A stretch of DNA of 64,000 nt from contig NZ_LT799838.1 in NCBI RefSeq assembly GCF_900168255.1, positions 3,038,001 to 3,102,000 on the forward strand, read 5' to 3'. Position numbers and translations under genes: made by a program. Under the pieces are notes generated by a model, which had not been told where the DNA came from, ran no database searches, and saw only the letters and a program-made list of their open reading frames with translations. This document shows, one piece after another, positions 12,918-60,907 of the stretch. The number at the start of each line of letters is the position of its first letter. The stretch's first letter is position 1. Origin of the DNA: Psychrobacter sp. DAB_AL43B (GTDB taxonomy: Bacteria > Pseudomonadota > Gammaproteobacteria > Pseudomonadales > Moraxellaceae).

Positions 12918-15806
12918 TTATGGCTTCACTGCCACCAGCACACGAATAGAATCTGGTACGAGTGATAAGCTTCCTAGCGCCTGCTCGCCTTGTGCTTGTA
13001 GCTGCTCTAAGCGTTCAATCTCTTCTGGACGCACGTTAGGATTGATGGTTTGTAGATGCTTAAGACGTTTAATCTCACGCGACCACTGCTGGCTAAAGCG
13101 TGCGCTTGCTTGCTCACCAATCTCAGCCAACTGCTGACGCGCAATGTCTTCGGCTTCATAATAACGCTGCTCAATCACATCGCCACGTACTTTAATCACT
13201 TGGCGCGCGCGGTTTTTATCTAAGCGCTCAATGTGCGGCATAATCATATCGGCGCTGATACGCGCGGATAAATCACTACCCTGCTCACTAATAAAGACAC
13301 GGATATTTTGCGTGCTCAAGGTCGCTGGCAAATTAAGCAATTTTGGTGCGATGGCTTCTACGCGGAAGTTTACTTCTAGCAGCACCATGCCTTGTGGCAC
13401 GGCGGCGCTTTTTAGCATCGCAACCGTGGTATTACCAAAGGTGCTGGTACTCGCCAGCTCATAAATCGCGCGCATTAGCGGATGCTCATGAGTGATGAAT
13501 TCGATATCCTCACGCTGCAGCGCTTGCTCACGCTCAAAAGTCAACGTCATGCCATCTTCATCACCAAGTGGCAGACCGTCGATATAATCACTAATTTCAG
13601 TGCTATCAATCGGTGCAATCACCCACGAGCCATCACGTTGGATGTTATGCTCGATATTGGCTGAGGCAAAAAATCGCTCAATAAACTGCGGCAATAGATT
13701 GTGACCGTCGAAGTCACGCATGGCATCAGCGATACGTCCAGCAACACGTGGACGGCACGAGTTGTATTCTAGTAAACGGTCGCGACCCGCTTGGAGCTGT
13801 TCCTCAAGTCCCAATCGCGTCTGTAATGCTTCTGCGACAACATTTTTAAGCGTTGTACGGTTCTCGTCGGTATCTGCACCCTCAAGCATTGGTTTCAGCT
13901 CTTGGATGTACTGCTCTTGCACGCTTTGCGCCGTCGGTGAAATCTGATTAAACATATTTAGCGCGCTGCTGTACCAGTGATAGAGGCGCTCTTGCGCTGT
14001 GCCCTGCACATAAGGCACATGCAACATAATTTGCTGCGTTTGCCCGATACGATCTAGACGACCGATACGCTGCTCTAGTGTATCGGGGTTGGCTGGTAAG
14101 TCCCACAATATCAGCTGGCTGGCAAACTGGAAGTTGCGACCTTCAGAACCAATCTCAGAGCATAATAATATCTGCGCACCTTCACTATCGGCAAAAAATG
14201 CCGCCGCTTGGTCGCGCTCAAGTAAGGTCATCTGCTCGGTAAAGATGGCCGTCTTAATACCAGCATGTAGACGCAATACTGCTTCTAAACTCTCAACCGT
14301 CGCGCCACTACGAGCAATCAATAGCACTTTTTTGTGCTTAAGCTCACCCTTTAAGATATTAATTAACCAAGGAACACGCGGGTCATCTTCTAACCAGCCG
14401 CCATCAGGCTGATTTTCTTCGCCCCATAGCTGCTCACGCAATTTGCCGTTGGTTTGGTAGCTATCGATCCATGCTTCAGGTAATGGCAGTGGATATGGCT
14501 GGCTACTACGTCCGTAGAAGCCTTTGACACTTTCACGGGTATTGCGGAATAAAATACGTCCAGTACCATGGCGATCTAGCAGCTCATTGAGCGCATAAGT
14601 GCGTAGTTTTTCGTCTTCATTAATCGTTGCTAATTCATCAATACTAATCGTAAGCAGGCTGCTTAACGCTGCGATTTGCCCTTCACTTAACGGCTTATCT
14701 TCTATTAATACGCTTGCGACTGACGCAGTTTCCGCAAAGGCTTCTTGTCCATCAATAAATTCATCTAAATCGTCAAAGCGAGCGGGATCTAATAAACGCA
14801 AACGCGCAAAGTGACTTTGTGCGCCAAGCTGCTCAGGCGTCGCTGTCAATAACATGACCCCTGCCGTTTCTTCGGCAAAGTCTGCAATGAGGTCATACTT
14901 ATCATTACCGCCTTGCGTCTCATCCCAATGCAAGTGATGCGCCTCATCGACGACCAGTAAATCAAACCCTGCGTCCATCGCTTGGTCATACAAGTCAGGA
15001 TGGTCGAGCAATAGATCCATACCAGCGATGATACATTGCTCAGTGTTAAAGACGTTTTGCTCAGGGTCATGTTCTTTAATCGCCGCGGTACGTACCAAAT
15101 CAAACAGGGCAAAGTTTAGATTAAAACGACGACGTAGCTCGATCATCCACTGGTATTGCAGGCTGTCCGGCACGAGAATGAGCACGCGCTCAGCTTTGCC
15201 AGTCAGCAACTGCTGATGAATAACCAAACCCGCTTCAATAGTTTTACCCAAACCAACTTCGTCGGCAAGCAACACACGCGGTGCGATACGTTTGCCAACT
15301 TCATGGGCGATATAAAGCTGATGCTCAATGATATCGACGCGCGCGCCCATTAGACCTTTTAATGGATGACCAGCAATTGCCGATTGCATACGCAAAATAT
15401 CTTGACGCAAATCGTACCAATCACTACGTTCAATACGACCAGCCAGCAGACGCTCAAGTGGCTTTGCTAAGGTGATATTGGCGGCAAGACGGGTTTCCAT
15501 GATGGCTTTCTCATGCCCATCAACGCTGTATTTGAGCACGCCCATCACTTCTTCGACGGCGCTTACCGTATAGCTCTTACCCGCCTGATCAGAGATGCTA
15601 TCGCCAACCTTAAATACTACACGCGACAACGGCGCAGAGTTTTTCGCATAAACGCGCGTCTCTTCACTTTGGGGAAATAAAATATGTACACATCGGTCGT
15701 CTACATCGATGACCACACCTAAGCCCAGCTCGGACTCCGTATCAGATAAATAGCGTTGACCAACGGCGAATTCGGTGCTGTGCAATGAAGCGATAGAGAT
15801 AGTCAT
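12918..15806 (-). CDS. rapA: RNA polymerase-associated ATPase RapA
   Basis: A 962-residue SWI2/SNF2-family ATPase that binds RNA polymerase and helps recycle it after transcription. The N-terminal 100 residues form the Tudor-like region (GQRYLSDTESELGLGVV). The helicase core has Walker A in ADEVGLGKT (181-189) and the DEAH box at 287-290, followed by LLLTATPEQLG. The second lobe ends with EGRNFQFASQLILWDLPANPDTLEQRIGRLDRIGQ, motifs V and VI. The C-terminal RapA-specific domain follows. Length matches the family (E. coli 968). Single gene with its own terminator; no strong ribosome-binding site is visible before the ATG. Confidence 0.96.
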   Translation of the reverse strand: MTISIASLHSTEFAVGQRYLSDTESELGLGVVIDVDDRCVHILFPQSEETRVYAKNSAPLSRVVFKVGDSISDQAGKSYTVSAVEEVMGVLKYSVDGHEKAIMETRLAANITLAKPLERLLAGRIERSDWYDLRQDILRMQSAIAGHPLKGLMGARVDIIEHQLYIAHEVGKRIAPRVLLADEVGLGKTIEAGLVIHQQLLTGKAERVLILVPDSLQYQWMIELRRRFNLNFALFDLVRTAAIKEHDPEQNVFNTEQCIIAGMDLLLDHPDLYDQAMDAGFDLLVVDEAHHLHWDETQGGNDKYDLIADFAEETAGVMLLTATPEQLGAQSHFARLRLLDPARFDDLDEFIDGQEAFAETASVASVLIEDKPLSEGQIAALSSLLTISIDELATINEDEKLRTYALNELLDRHGTGRILFRNTRESVKGFYGRSSQPYPLPLPEAWIDSYQTNGKLREQLWGEENQPDGGWLEDDPRVPWLINILKGELKHKKVLLIARSGATVESLEAVLRLHAGIKTAIFTEQMTLLERDQAAAFFADSEGAQILLCSEIGSEGRNFQFASQLILWDLPANPDTLEQRIGRLDRIGQTQQIMLHVPYVQGTAQERLYHWYSSALNMFNQISPTAQSVQEQYIQELKPMLEGADTDENRTTLKNVVAEALQTRLGLEEQLQAGRDRLLEYNSCRPRVAGRIADAMRDFDGHNLLPQFIERFFASANIEHNIQRDGSWVIAPIDSTEISDYIDGLPLGDEDGMTLTFEREQALQREDIEFITHEHPLMRAIYELASTSTFGNTTVAMLKSAAVPQGMVLLEVNFRVEAIAPKLLNLPATLSTQNIRVFISEQGSDLSARISADMIMPHIERLDKNRARQVIKVRGDVIEQRYYEAEDIARQQLAEIGEQASARFSQQWSREIKRLKHLQTINPNVRPEEIERLEQLQAQGEQALGSLSLVPDSIRVLVAVKP

Positions 15807-16334
15807 AGGGCGATGTCTTTTGTACTCAGATGATAAGAAAGTAAGTAGCTTACGATGCGAGCCATGCTTGCTGGGTCAGTAACATTAGTAAGCTAGGTCA
15901 GTCAATAAAGCAGACCATTATATAACGTTAGCGACTAGATGAGTGCGCTAAGTTAACTTTTCAAGAGCAGATTCATGCAAGATTCTGGCAAAGCCAAGCA
16001 TAAGTTGGTCATACAAAACAATAAGATAACGACTCGCAAGTAAAGAAAAAATATTGTTATTATAAAATTGTTGCTGTATTGTTAACAAATGCAATAGGAC
16101 ATTGCTTTCTATTTGCAAGACTATTTGATCAATCTGAATTACTTAGATATTTACTCACCTATTACCTATACACCCTGATAGCCACTATCGATTCTTTCTC
16201 AGCGGTTATAGGCATAGTTTTTCTTATTGTAGTCCATTAAGTTATTATTCGTATTATTTATCATTACTTTAAGTTATGTAAATATTTTTTGTCGTTTACG
16301 TTCATGACCAATTATTTATATAGCGTTTTAATTA
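15807..16334. other. Intergenic region between divergent rapA and the sensor kinase gene
   Basis: About 530 bp of AT-rich DNA without a credible gene. It must hold the rapA promoter and the upstream part of the kinase promoter region. The only further signals are the candidate promoter and the octamer repeat described separately. Confidence 0.6.
16295..16322 (+). promoter_or_regulatory. Candidate promoter of the sensor kinase gene
   Basis: TTTACG (16295-16300), 16 bases, then TATATA (16317-16322). If used, transcription would start near 16329 and the octamer array would lie in the 5' untranslated leader. The -35 match is weak. Confidence 0.4.
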
Positions 16335-16340
16335 AGCATA

Positions 16341-16412
16341 AGCACATAAGCACATAAGCACATAAGCACATAAGCACATAAGCACATAAGCACATAAGCA
16401 CATAAGCACATA
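16341..16412 (+). repeat. Octanucleotide tandem repeat, 9 copies of AGCACATA
   Basis: Nine perfect copies of the 8-bp unit AGCACATA, preceded by a 6-bp degenerate unit (AGCATA). The array ends 70 bp before the kinase start codon. Perfect short-unit arrays are prone to slipped-strand changes in copy number, so this may tune or switch expression of the downstream gene. Confidence 0.97.
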
Positions 16413-16423
16413 AGCGATTGTGA

Positions 16424-16440
16424 CCAATAAACCATATTGG
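16424..16440. promoter_or_regulatory. Inverted repeat CCAATA-N5-TATTGG
   Basis: A 6-bp perfect inverted repeat with 5-base spacer between the octamer array and the kinase ribosome-binding site. It could be an operator or a leader hairpin; no regulator is recognisable. Confidence 0.4.
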
Positions 16441-16482
16441 CAGTCTTCTTTGTGATCCCTATTACCAAGGACAAACACTATA

Positions 16483-18795
16483 ATGAGTGACTCCAAAAAA
16501 GTTGGCTTTTTCAACCAAGTTAGTACCCAAGTTACTACTATTTTATTTATTGCTTTTGCGGTCGTACTGGCGGTCGTTGTTTATGTTGTTGACAAAGAAG
16601 GCTATGAAAAAATTCGCCTTGAGTCAGCAAAACTGGTCGCTGAGCGCGGTAACACGGCGGTTAATAGTATCTCTGCCGATATCAATCGGGTGATGCGTAG
16701 TGCCTTGCTGCTACAGCAAAGTGCGCAAACCTTACCACTACAAGAAAATATTTTACAAGCCAGTACCGCCAATGCTTTTGATAAGCGCGATTATAACTTA
16801 TTAGGTAGTGGCGGCATTTGGCCTGATAACGGTGCGCTTGGAGCAAATACTGCGACGCATCCGTTCTTGATGGTGCGCCAAAATGGTGATTATCAAGCGG
16901 TACTAAGCGATCCAAATCCGGCCAATCCTTATTATCAAGAAGATTGGTTTAGCGTTCTAAAATTGCTTAAACCTGACAGTTGTATCTGGAACCATGTCCG
17001 CGCCAGCCAAACCAAAGGCGAGCTTGCCATGAGCTGCGGTGTCGCTATTGAACGTGACAATCAGTTTTGGGGTGCCAGTACGGTCAACTTTACCCTCAAC
17101 CAGTTACAAGAAAATATTGTTAAGCTCAGTGAAAGCTCGGGCTCTGGTTATATTCTATTGCTAGATAATAGTGATAAGGTTATTGCCTCGTCTAACCCTG
17201 AACGCTTAAGCTATATTGATGAAGAGACAGGCACGCCGCTTGATATCAAACAGGTGATTAACTCTGACCCAGCTTGGCAACCGGTACTTGATTTCTTAGA
17301 TGTCCAACGTCAAGAAACTATCGAGCAAGTCGCCTCCAGTGTATCGCCGCAAATACAGCAAGTACTAACCACACTCGATAAAGCTGAAACCGGTACGGCA
17401 AAAGGTTACTATTTGGTCAACTACGCTGCTTATTTAAATAACGGTGAAAATAAGCAAAATGCCATGGATAGCCGCTTGTTACAAAGCTTTGAGCTGGCAA
17501 AAGACAGTTACTATAACGGCAGTCAAGCGTATGTGTTTGAGATTCCTGAAACTTATTGGAAGCTGATCGTCGTACAGCCTGATGATGAGATTAACGCCAT
17601 TGCCGACAATCTAAGTGAAAACTTGATTAACTGGATTGCTTTAGCGCTATTATTCACCGCTGGTATTATTTATTTCATGCTGACTTTCTTGGCATTTAAA
17701 CCATTGAAAGAAACTACTGATAAAATTTCTTTGGCAGAAAACATCATTAACAATAAGCAATACAACAAATTGAGCTCCGTTAAATTTAAGAAAGGTCGCA
17801 ACGAGATTGGGCTGGTAAACGGCTCTATTAATGACCTATTAGATCGCATTCAATCTAACGAAGGTAAACTTGCCAATATCAATCAGCAGCTTGAGATTAA
17901 AGTCGAAGAGCGTACCGCTGAGCTGCAAGAGACGCTAAAAGAGCTGAAAAGCTCGCAGCTACAATTAATACGTTCAGAAAAAATGGCAACGCTAGGACAA
18001 ATGGTGGCAGGCGTCGCTCATGAAGTGAATACGCCATTGTCTTATGTGCAAAATAACCTTGAGATTATCGGTCAGCTGACTGAGCAATACGAAGAGTTGA
18101 TTGAATTGGTACAAGGGTTAAAAGGTATCAAGTCTGACGCAGCAGCTGATGGCAAAATTGATAAGCTATTGGCTGATATCGTCCGTGCTTCTGATGAAAT
18201 CCAAGAAGATGATCTATCAGCTGAGCTAAAAGAGCTGATTAAAGACTCGCTATTTGGGGTCGAGCAAATCACCGAGATGGTATTAAACCTACGCAACTTC
18301 GCCCGTCTTGATGAGTCAAAAGTGAAAACTATTGATGTGCGTGAATGTATCGAAGCCTCACTTAAAATCGCTGGTAACTCTATCAGACATCAAGAGATTG
18401 TTACTGATTTTGCGCCAACGCCTGAAGTGAAATGTTCACCGTCGCAGATCAACCAAGTGCTGGTCAATTTGTTAAACAATGCCTCGCAAGCTATGGAAGA
18501 AAAACCGGATGGCAAAATCGAAGTGCGTACCCGTGCTGATGACAGCAATGTATATATTGATGTCAGCGATAATGGTAAAGGCATGAGCGCTGAAGTGCTT
18601 AATCAAATATTCGAGCCATTCTTTACCACCAAAGGCGCAGGCGAAGGGACGGGGCTTGGGATGGCAATCAGTCAGCAGATTATGGAACAGCATAATGGTG
18701 ACATTAAAGCGATATCGACTGAAGGCATTGGCACTACATTTACCTTAACGCTACCGATTAATAATGATTTAACGGAAAAAAGCCTAGCAGCATAA
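16483..18795 (+). CDS. Membrane sensor histidine kinase with Cache-like periplasmic domain
   Basis: A 770-residue kinase. One membrane segment lies near residues 13-35 and another near 383-405; about 345 residues between them form a periplasmic sensor that looks Cache-like (WNHVRASQTKGELAMSCGVA, FWGASTVNFTLNQL). A HAMP-like stretch and coiled coil (VEERTAELQETLKELKSSQLQL) lead to the phosphoacceptor in GVAHEVNTPL, His513. The ATPase domain has NLLNNASQAM (N box), DNGKGM (G1), FEPFFTTKGAGEGTGLGMAI (F and G2). This architecture is typical of kinases acting with receiver-only or HD-GYP regulators. The regulator gene follows 84 bp downstream. Ribosome-binding site AAGGA precedes the ATG. The ligand is unknown. 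Confidence 0.9.
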   Translation: MSDSKKVGFFNQVSTQVTTILFIAFAVVLAVVVYVVDKEGYEKIRLESAKLVAERGNTAVNSISADINRVMRSALLLQQSAQTLPLQENILQASTANAFDKRDYNLLGSGGIWPDNGALGANTATHPFLMVRQNGDYQAVLSDPNPANPYYQEDWFSVLKLLKPDSCIWNHVRASQTKGELAMSCGVAIERDNQFWGASTVNFTLNQLQENIVKLSESSGSGYILLLDNSDKVIASSNPERLSYIDEETGTPLDIKQVINSDPAWQPVLDFLDVQRQETIEQVASSVSPQIQQVLTTLDKAETGTAKGYYLVNYAAYLNNGENKQNAMDSRLLQSFELAKDSYYNGSQAYVFEIPETYWKLIVVQPDDEINAIADNLSENLINWIALALLFTAGIIYFMLTFLAFKPLKETTDKISLAENIINNKQYNKLSSVKFKKGRNEIGLVNGSINDLLDRIQSNEGKLANINQQLEIKVEERTAELQETLKELKSSQLQLIRSEKMATLGQMVAGVAHEVNTPLSYVQNNLEIIGQLTEQYEELIELVQGLKGIKSDAAADGKIDKLLADIVRASDEIQEDDLSAELKELIKDSLFGVEQITEMVLNLRNFARLDESKVKTIDVRECIEASLKIAGNSIRHQEIVTDFAPTPEVKCSPSQINQVLVNLLNNASQAMEEKPDGKIEVRTRADDSNVYIDVSDNGKGMSAEVLNQIFEPFFTTKGAGEGTGLGMAISQQIMEQHNGDIKAISTEGIGTTFTLTLPINNDLTEKSLAA

Positions 18796-33386: not shown

Positions 33387-33512
33387 AATATCGTACTATT
33401 AATTAATATTATCTCTATCCATGTAGATAATCGCTTATGGACAATCAGTTATAAGTAATCACTTATAGAAAATCATTTAAAAAGCAGCATACCTAAGTAG
33501 AATAGTTAATAT

Positions 33513-52668: not shown

Positions 52669-52748
52669 AGGTAATTTTTAAAACGATCATTTAAATTTAA
52701 AGCGATTTGTGATTTAAAGCGTATTTATAATTTAAAGCACTACAAACA

Positions 52749-60255: not shown

Positions 60256-60907
60256 TGTTATATCCTCTAATACATCTCATTTAAAAGCAGTCAAAGTAAG
60301 AGCGGTAAAATTAATAGCACCATAGAGCAGTGCAATTGATGTTGGTATAGCTGTTACAAACTTGGTAGCACAGTATACTATTAAACCTACAGCTTCCTAT
60401 ACTATAGCGTATTGTTGGTAACAAAACCTATAAACTACATCCGCTAAAACTTTAGTTTGCGTCCAAAAATCATACCTTTTATAGCGAACAAAAGAAATAA
60501 AATAGTTTTTATTCAATAATTATTTTTTATCATATTCAAACGATTACTTACCAAGCTAGATAGCCAAATAATACAGACACGCTTAATCAAAATCAGGACT
60601 AGTAACTTGATACTTAAAGTTTTATTTTCTAACCCCTAATATAACCATATATTGCCATTGTCGCTAGCGACTTTTCCAGCAGTTTATAAAAAACTTTTAA
60701 TTCGTTGATGAGGATTCTATTAATACAGTGTATCTCTGTGGGAGTTAAACATAAAAAGCCAAACGATGGTAAAAACAGACATATAAAAAGGTAGTTATAA
60801 AAAGGTAGTTATAAAAAGACAGGCATAAAAAAACAGCCCATCATGGACTGTTTTTTATTATCGTAGAAAAAGCTAAAATAAATAGTTAACCTTACTAACA
60901 AAAAATA
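60256..60907. other. Long intergenic region between atpC and bfmR
   Basis: About 650 bp, AT-rich, no credible gene. It contains the bfmR promoter region, two tandem copies of the 14-bp unit ATAAAAAGGTAGTT (60783-60810) and, nearer atpC, an imperfect hairpin with T-rich end. Confidence 0.6.
60826..60857 (-). terminator. Terminator of the atp operon
   Basis: AAAAAACAGCCCATCATGGACTG-type hairpin (arms AAAAAACAGCCCA and TGGACTGTTTTTT, one mismatch) about 50 bp after the atpC stop; bidirectional A/T tracts. Confidence 0.75.

What the first reader, a model, noticed from the sequence alone, without database searches (positions are those of the whole stretch)
16341..16412. Nine perfect octamer repeats in the leader of a sensor kinase gene: candidate contingency locus
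AGCACATA is repeated nine times without error, 70 bp before the start codon of a two-component kinase. A candidate promoter lies just upstream, so the array would be in the 5' untranslated region. Octamer arrays elsewhere change copy number by slippage and switch genes. A signalling operon under such control would make whole populations heterogeneous in one sensory pathway.
Basis: partly seen in the sequence, partly recalled or inferred. Interest (0 to 1): 0.7.

Follow-up and report, generated by a model that had tools for sequence, protein, structure and literature searches.

The report
Young octamer repeat before kinase gene
A short DNA word repeated almost ten times sits in front of a sensor gene of a Psychrobacter bacterium; it seems to have grown there recently and was not found in the related species examined, so it may change length easily, but whether it switches the gene is unproven.

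Summary
The array is real: period 8, unbroken, 79 bp (16337-16415, 9.9 copies), far beyond chance. The genome is a Psychrobacter. A three-unit pattern occurs at this one place in it and in 0 of 194 other genomes, 104 of them congeners. None of 32 related leaders read has an array there. The nearest relative found (P. glacincola ACAM483) has 15 bp there, matching 1.9 units at 12 of 15 positions, and the window is longer by exactly 64 bp, eight units, with other leader distances equal. So it probably grew in place by slippage. No promoter was found just upstream. The best conserved promoter-like block, TTGGCA-17-TATTAC, lies between array and start codon, which would put the array upstream of the core promoter, not in the 5' UTR; but sites of nearly equal score lie upstream of the array, and the block's predicted start falls at the likely ribosome site, so this is open. 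A 400-kb sample of the same genome holds six other short arrays: such arrays are ordinary here. Best reading: young microsatellite, probably little effect; a promoter-distance rheostat stays possible (0.2). No second isolate was compared.

The parts
16337..16415 (+). tandem array, unit CATAAGCA (= AGCACATA rotated), 9.875 perfect copies
16229..16245 (+). conserved upstream element A, GTAGTCCATTAAGTTAT here; 64 bp further from ATG than in the nearest relative found
   Evidence: matched with 0-2 substitutions in 23 of 32 other leaders
16325..16336 (+). conserved element A2, GTTTTAATTAAG, abutting the array
   Evidence: 0-2 substitutions in 15 of 32 other leaders, at -94 to -101
16437..16454 (+). 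conserved block B, TTGGCAGTCTTCTTTGTG, with -35-like TTGGCA at 16437-16442
16460..16465 (+). -10-like TATTAC, 17 bp from TTGGCA; candidate core promoter downstream of the array
   Evidence: column permutations reached the observed mean score in 2 of 300
16466..16471 (+). CAAGGA, likely ribosome-binding site, 11 nt before ATG
   Evidence: exact in 31 of 32 other leaders, one mismatch in the other (L042)
16483..18795 (+). sensor histidine kinase gene (dCache-like sensor, HisKA, HATPase_c), 770 aa
18880..19848 (+). response regulator with two receiver stretches, no other Pfam domain
12918..15806 (-). rapA, divergent neighbour; the array lies about 530 bp before its start

Best explanation
A young microsatellite that arose in place. 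At the site the nearest relative found has a 15-bp stretch of the same length and similar sequence as 1.9 units (CACAACCACATGAGC against CATAAGCACATAAGC). In the window's lineage a stretch of this kind became a perfect pair and expanded by replication slippage to about ten units, 64 bp more than the relative. It should keep changing in copy number. It lies in a linker between conserved upstream elements and a conserved block that holds a likely core promoter and ribosome site, and most likely has little or only modest quantitative effect on the kinase gene. Shown: the array, its absence from the leaders read, the exact 64-bp difference, the flanking conservation. Inferred: slippage as the process, direction of change, present mutability, weak effect.
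For: Exact period-8 run. One place in the genome, 0 of 194 other genomes. 0 of 32 related leaders with an array at the site. In the relative L008 elements A and A2 sit at -190 and -94, here at -254 and -158: both shifted by 64 bp, with block B and CAAGGA at the same place; the 15 bp there match the first 15 bp of the array at 12 positions. The A-to-ATG distance varies in other leaders, -138 to -221. Six other short arrays of unrelated units in a 400-kb sample of the same genome, two inside ORFs with units divisible by three, the others wholly or almost wholly intergenic near unrelated genes. As single DNA strands the array folds no better than any of 200 shuffles, on either strand.
Against: The relative's 15 bp are not a clear duplicate in themselves: they agree with themselves at period 8 at only 4 of 7 positions, so the seed is an inference. 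The relative is only 88% identical in DNA, so number and order of steps are unknown. It is the array with most copies in the samples, within 70 bp of a start codon and against conserved elements, so a regulatory effect is plausible. In 12 of 13 other leaders with exact A2 and TTGGCA their distance is the same (42 bp; 36 in L008), which could mean a distance rule, though these leaders are closely related. No second isolate was compared, so mutability is unshown.
Confidence: 0.6

Rival explanations
1. Promoter-distance rheostat, working like nadA of Neisseria or hmw of Haemophilus: the array sits upstream of the core promoter TTGGCA-17-TATTAC and changes distance and helical phase of upstream elements (A, A2) to RNA polymerase. 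One unit is 0.76 helical turn, four units about three full turns, so expression should rise and fall with a period of about four units.
For: A conserved -35/-10-like pair lies downstream of the array; its mean score over 13 distinct leaders is reached by 2 of 300 column permutations. Conserved elements flank the array; A2 to TTGGCA is 42 bp in 12 of 13 other leaders where both are exact. 64 bp is 6.1 turns, so the present length nearly keeps the relative's phase. Precedent with a quasi-periodic pattern: nadA (PMC2791445, abstract and passages).
Against: Distance from element A to ATG varies in leaders without arrays. The predicted transcript would start about 16472, just behind CAAGGA, losing the likely ribosome site. 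In the window the pair scores 7.4, sites upstream of the array 7.2 and 7.1; it is the top site in only 10 of 25 leaders, many closely related. In 5 of the 13 rows the alignment puts a gap into the second hexamer. The score weights are recalled approximations for E. coli.
Confidence: 0.2
2. 5' UTR modulator, working like uspA2 of Moraxella catarrhalis: the array is transcribed and its length changes mRNA stability or translation.
For: Conserved CAAGGA before ATG implies a transcript that starts upstream of it. Promoter-like sites of nearly the best score lie about 90 bp before the array. The same bacterial family, Moraxellaceae, has this precedent: AGAT, 6-23 copies, in the uspA2 5' UTR (PMC4679880, introduction read).
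Against: No + strand consensus promoter in 15500-17000. The RNA from the array to the start of the gene folds no better than shuffles (z -0.98, 33 of 200 as good). The array is 67 nt before ATG and closed by stops in all three forward frames, so it cannot act by frame.
Confidence: 0.13
3. Cluster of binding sites (iteron-like) for a regulator or RNA-binding protein.
For: Perfect directly repeated octamers beside a regulatory gene pair.
Against: The three-fold unit occurs at no other place of the genome or of 194 others; no conserved copy of the unit at the place in the aligned leaders; 8-bp spacing is out of helical phase.
Confidence: 0.04

Closest known systems
nadA promoter TAAA repeats, Neisseria meningitidis (PMC2791445, abstract and passages)
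   Same: tandem array upstream of a core promoter between regulatory sites, if the downstream promoter is right
   Different: 4-bp unit, surface adhesin, known NadR and IHF sites, variation among isolates shown; none of this shown here
hmw1a/hmw2a repeats, Haemophilus influenzae (PMC2651432, passages)
   Same: heptanucleotide arrays about 100 bp and octanucleotide (GCATCATC, 12-15 copies) arrays 200-213 nt upstream of the gene
   Different: adhesin genes, copy number differs between strains; here a sensor kinase and no strain data
uspA2 AGAT repeats, Moraxella catarrhalis (PMC4679880, introduction read)
   Same: same bacterial family, array before the start codon
   Different: reported in the 5' UTR with an expression effect; tetranucleotide; strain variation known
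Phase-variable two-component genes: flgR and flgS of Campylobacter jejuni (PMC3930126, passages); Bordetella pertussis frameshift (a reference title in PMC11868660)
   Same: a signalling pathway subject to slippage or frameshift
   Different: homopolymer tracts for flgR and a frameshift in the Bordetella title; here an array outside the coding sequence
Haemophilus influenzae intergenic octanucleotide ATTATTTG between cmkB and pdxS (PMC2651432, passage)
   Same: intergenic octamer, 1-6 units, between divergent genes
   Different: seen to vary between strains; shorter

Membership tests
Simple-sequence-repeat contingency (phase-variable) locus | perfect tandem array longer than chance | tested here: met
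   run 71 versus maximum 15 in 100 simulations
Simple-sequence-repeat contingency (phase-variable) locus | copy number varies between isolates or within cultures | not testable with these tools
   no second isolate of the species reachable; only other species, which lack the array
Simple-sequence-repeat contingency (phase-variable) locus | copy number changes expression reversibly | not testable with these tools
   needs reporters
Simple-sequence-repeat contingency (phase-variable) locus | array kept, or re-evolved, at the same gene in related species (supporting, not strictly defining) | tested here: not met
   0 of 32 leaders with an array of 3 or more units at the site; one unrelated 15-mer array about 515 nt upstream in L009
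5' UTR repeat of the uspA2 type | array lies between promoter and start codon | tested here: inconclusive
   best-scoring promoter candidate lies downstream of the array but would lose the ribosome site; nearly equal sites lie upstream
Promoter-spacing repeat of the nadA/hmw type | array upstream of the core promoter, between it and regulatory sites | tested here: inconclusive
   conserved blocks on both sides; promoter by score and permutation only
Dispersed short direct-repeat family (TAACTGA type) | same unit repeated in front of many genes | tested here: not met
   one place in the genome; the leader matches only itself

The most novel reading that the evidence does not exclude
A bacterium of a genus known (recalled) mainly from cold and marine settings has put a whole sensory pathway under a multi-state DNA-length rheostat: each octamer gained or lost turns the upstream elements by about 274 degrees relative to the kinase promoter, so a clone carries cells set to several levels of one sensor kinase, away from surface antigens.
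Probability: 0.18. Interest if true: 0.6.

Novelty: new member of a known kind. Interest (0 to 1): 0.3.

Why it matters
If length changes alter kinase expression, it would extend repeat-driven bet-hedging from surface structures of host-adapted bacteria to sensing in a bacterium of another way of life, through promoter distance rather than frameshift. Even if not, the site is a clean case of a recent microsatellite, with a sequenced relative that keeps the short form.

Tried and rejected
Mobile or dispersed origin of the array: rejected; the leader matches only itself in the genome and its flanks align with the nearest relative up to the array. Frame-switching: rejected; the array is outside the gene and has stops in all three forward frames. 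A minus-strand gene through the array: the repeat itself is open on that strand, but no ORF of 80 aa or more is listed there. Structured RNA or DNA: none found. Loss of mismatch repair as the cause: MutS and the MutL transducer domain are present; MutL_C is above cut-off in 0 of 105 genomes of the genus, so this does not mark out this strain. Element A as a member of a dispersed repeat: not supported in the 464 kb looked at.

On re-checking I corrected: element A2 is matched in 15 of 32 leaders; the relative's 15 bp are described by their counts instead of as two copies; the constant 42-bp distance and the upstream promoter-like sites are now told. In one search the window's own row carried one base too many, so its positions read one too far; the coordinates here are.

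Full report
Observation. The array is as described, slightly longer: period-8 identity over 16337-16415, 79 bp, 9.875 units, with nine exact AGCACATA at 16341-16412. The longest run for any other period 4-12 in the window is 14, and 100 simulated sequences never exceeded 15, against 71 here.

Setting. The array lies in the 676-bp gap between divergent rapA (12918-15806, minus) and a 770-aa sensor histidine kinase (16483-18795), followed by a response regulator with two receiver stretches and no other Pfam domain. The genome-contig scan returned 27 loci: 24 with a match from residue 1 (L008-L031), all titled Psychrobacter, two partial Psychrobacter matches (L032, L033) and one remote Neobacillus match (L034); the last three were set aside. 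The tool says that records of the window's own or a very near genome may be left out there. The host genome is one contig of 3,309,148 bases.

Distribution. A three-unit pattern is found at this place only in the own genome and in 0 of 194 others, 104 of them congeners. In the genus search 54 of 105 genomes have a match at E up to 1e-100; many matches are 35-38% identical, probably a paralogue. By my reading of its table 32 genomes besides the own one hold an orthologue of 78% or more, whole or split. I read 32 leaders: 24 and 8, one of which (L042) belongs to a 50% relative. By matching coordinates I infer that these cover 31 of the 32 orthologues; the split one of G025 was not read. None of the 32 has an array of three or more units at the site; L009 has a 15-mer array about 515 nt upstream.

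Origin. The nearest relative found, L008 (P. glacincola ACAM483; 88.2% DNA identity over the aligned neighbourhood among the loci compared, and the highest kinase identity as G042), has 15 bp, CACAACCACATGAGC, between the flanks AATTAAG and GATTGTG that it shares with the window; the first 15 bp of the array match it at 12 of 15 positions; it agrees with itself at period 8 at 4 of 7. Conserved element A lies at -254 here and -190 there, A2 at -158 and -94, block B at -46 in both, CAAGGA at -17 in both. The difference is thus 64 bp between the flanks, eight octamers. This is what slippage expansion of a short seed would leave; the direction (growth here rather than loss there) rests on the absence from the other leaders.

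Promoter. The consensus scan found no + strand site in 15500-17000. With recalled E. coli weights the best-scoring site in the window leader is TTGGCA-17-TATTAC (16437-16465), between array and ATG, at 7.4; sites with -10-like hexamers at 16243 and 16252, upstream of the array, score 7.2 and 7.1. TTGGCA-17 is the top site in 10 of the 25 leaders scored (window included), many of them closely related. In the 13 distinct leaders of the main clade its mean score was reached by 2 of 300 column permutations (eight leaders of other clades left out, leaders with the same last 60 nt collapsed, a gap inside the second hexamer in 5 rows). Against it: the expected transcript start would fall just behind CAAGGA, which is exact in 31 of 32 other leaders at 10-11 nt from ATG and looks like the ribosome site. 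So the array's place relative to the transcript start is open, with a lean to upstream.

Is it special in its genome? In 400 kb of 20 evenly spaced stretches I found six other exact arrays of three or more units and 18 bp or more, with units of 6, 7, 8, 12, 17 and 18 bp. Those of 12 and 18 bp lie inside ORFs; the 17-mer lies between two genes and overlaps the end of one ORF by 14 bp; the 6-, 7- and 8-mer arrays are intergenic, near unrelated genes. The 8-mer array was not found with three or more units in the 29 other loci fetched for it. Congeners show arrays too, with other units at other places: three in 252,405 bases around the kinase and arrays in 4 of the 58 loci left after the two own ones. 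Short private arrays are therefore ordinary in this genus, which weakens the case that this one was selected as a switch. It is the array with most copies that I saw.

Mechanism. The array is not translated and is closed by stops in all forward frames; as single DNA strands it folds no better than any shuffle, and the RNA from the array to the start of the gene is ordinary. If it acts, it most likely acts by distance. Eight base pairs are 0.76 turn, four units about three turns (3.05 for +32 bp); ten units differ from the relative by 6.1 turns. Under the promoter-distance model this predicts a period of about four units. The variation of the A-to-ATG distance in other leaders (-138 to -221) speaks against a strict distance rule for A; the constant 42 bp between A2 and TTGGCA in 12 of the 13 other leaders where both are exact (36 in L008) speaks for one, or only for close kinship.

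Literature. Repeats upstream of promoters that tune expression are known (nadA, PMC2791445, abstract and passages), as are octanucleotide arrays upstream of hmw genes (PMC2651432, passages), repeats before the start codon in Moraxella catarrhalis (PMC4679880, introduction read; passages; also PMC8895709, passages) and slippage-switched two-component genes (flgR, flgS, PMC3930126, passages; a Bordetella reference title in PMC11868660). Searches joining Psychrobacter or Moraxellaceae with phase variation or repeats showed no such locus in Psychrobacter among the rows listed (15 of 345, 12 of 110, 8 of 12, 8 of 20 papers; titles and starts of abstracts only); they cover open-licence papers only, so absence from print is not claimed.

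Verdict. A genuine, probably recent microsatellite, private among the genomes examined, before a sensor kinase gene. The kind is known; the target class would be the interesting point.

Noticed in passing
L055:15863-16012; G000 C1:2938342-2938492, 545355-545503, 556421-556568, 1136602-1136750; core match near window 27832 (minus): A dispersed intergenic repeat of about 150 bp; 110 first-look candidates in G000 and 401 in G042 for the whole query, only five scored per genome, and matches to that part of the query in many congeners. Short arrays of TTTCAT and ACCATTA sit inside or at the edge of two copies.
   Followed up: partly
G000 C1:1441773-1442108 and genus: MutL is found in G000 by its transducer domain, but the MutL_C family is above cut-off in 0 of 105 Psychrobacter genomes, while it rings in 11 of 14 control genomes: perhaps a divergent C-terminal domain across the genus.
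   Followed up: partly
L043:10134, L054:18264, L055:16012: Other intergenic short arrays in the same genome (8-, 6- and 7-bp units), 94 to 535 bp from a gene start: candidates for the same length test.
   Followed up: partly
window 33424-33479, 60782-60818, 52689-52738: Weaker tandem repeats of 14-18 bp units listed by TRF.
   Followed up: no
window 16000-16055: A block well conserved in many of the aligned leaders on the rapA side of the gap, possibly the rapA promoter or leader.
   Followed up: no
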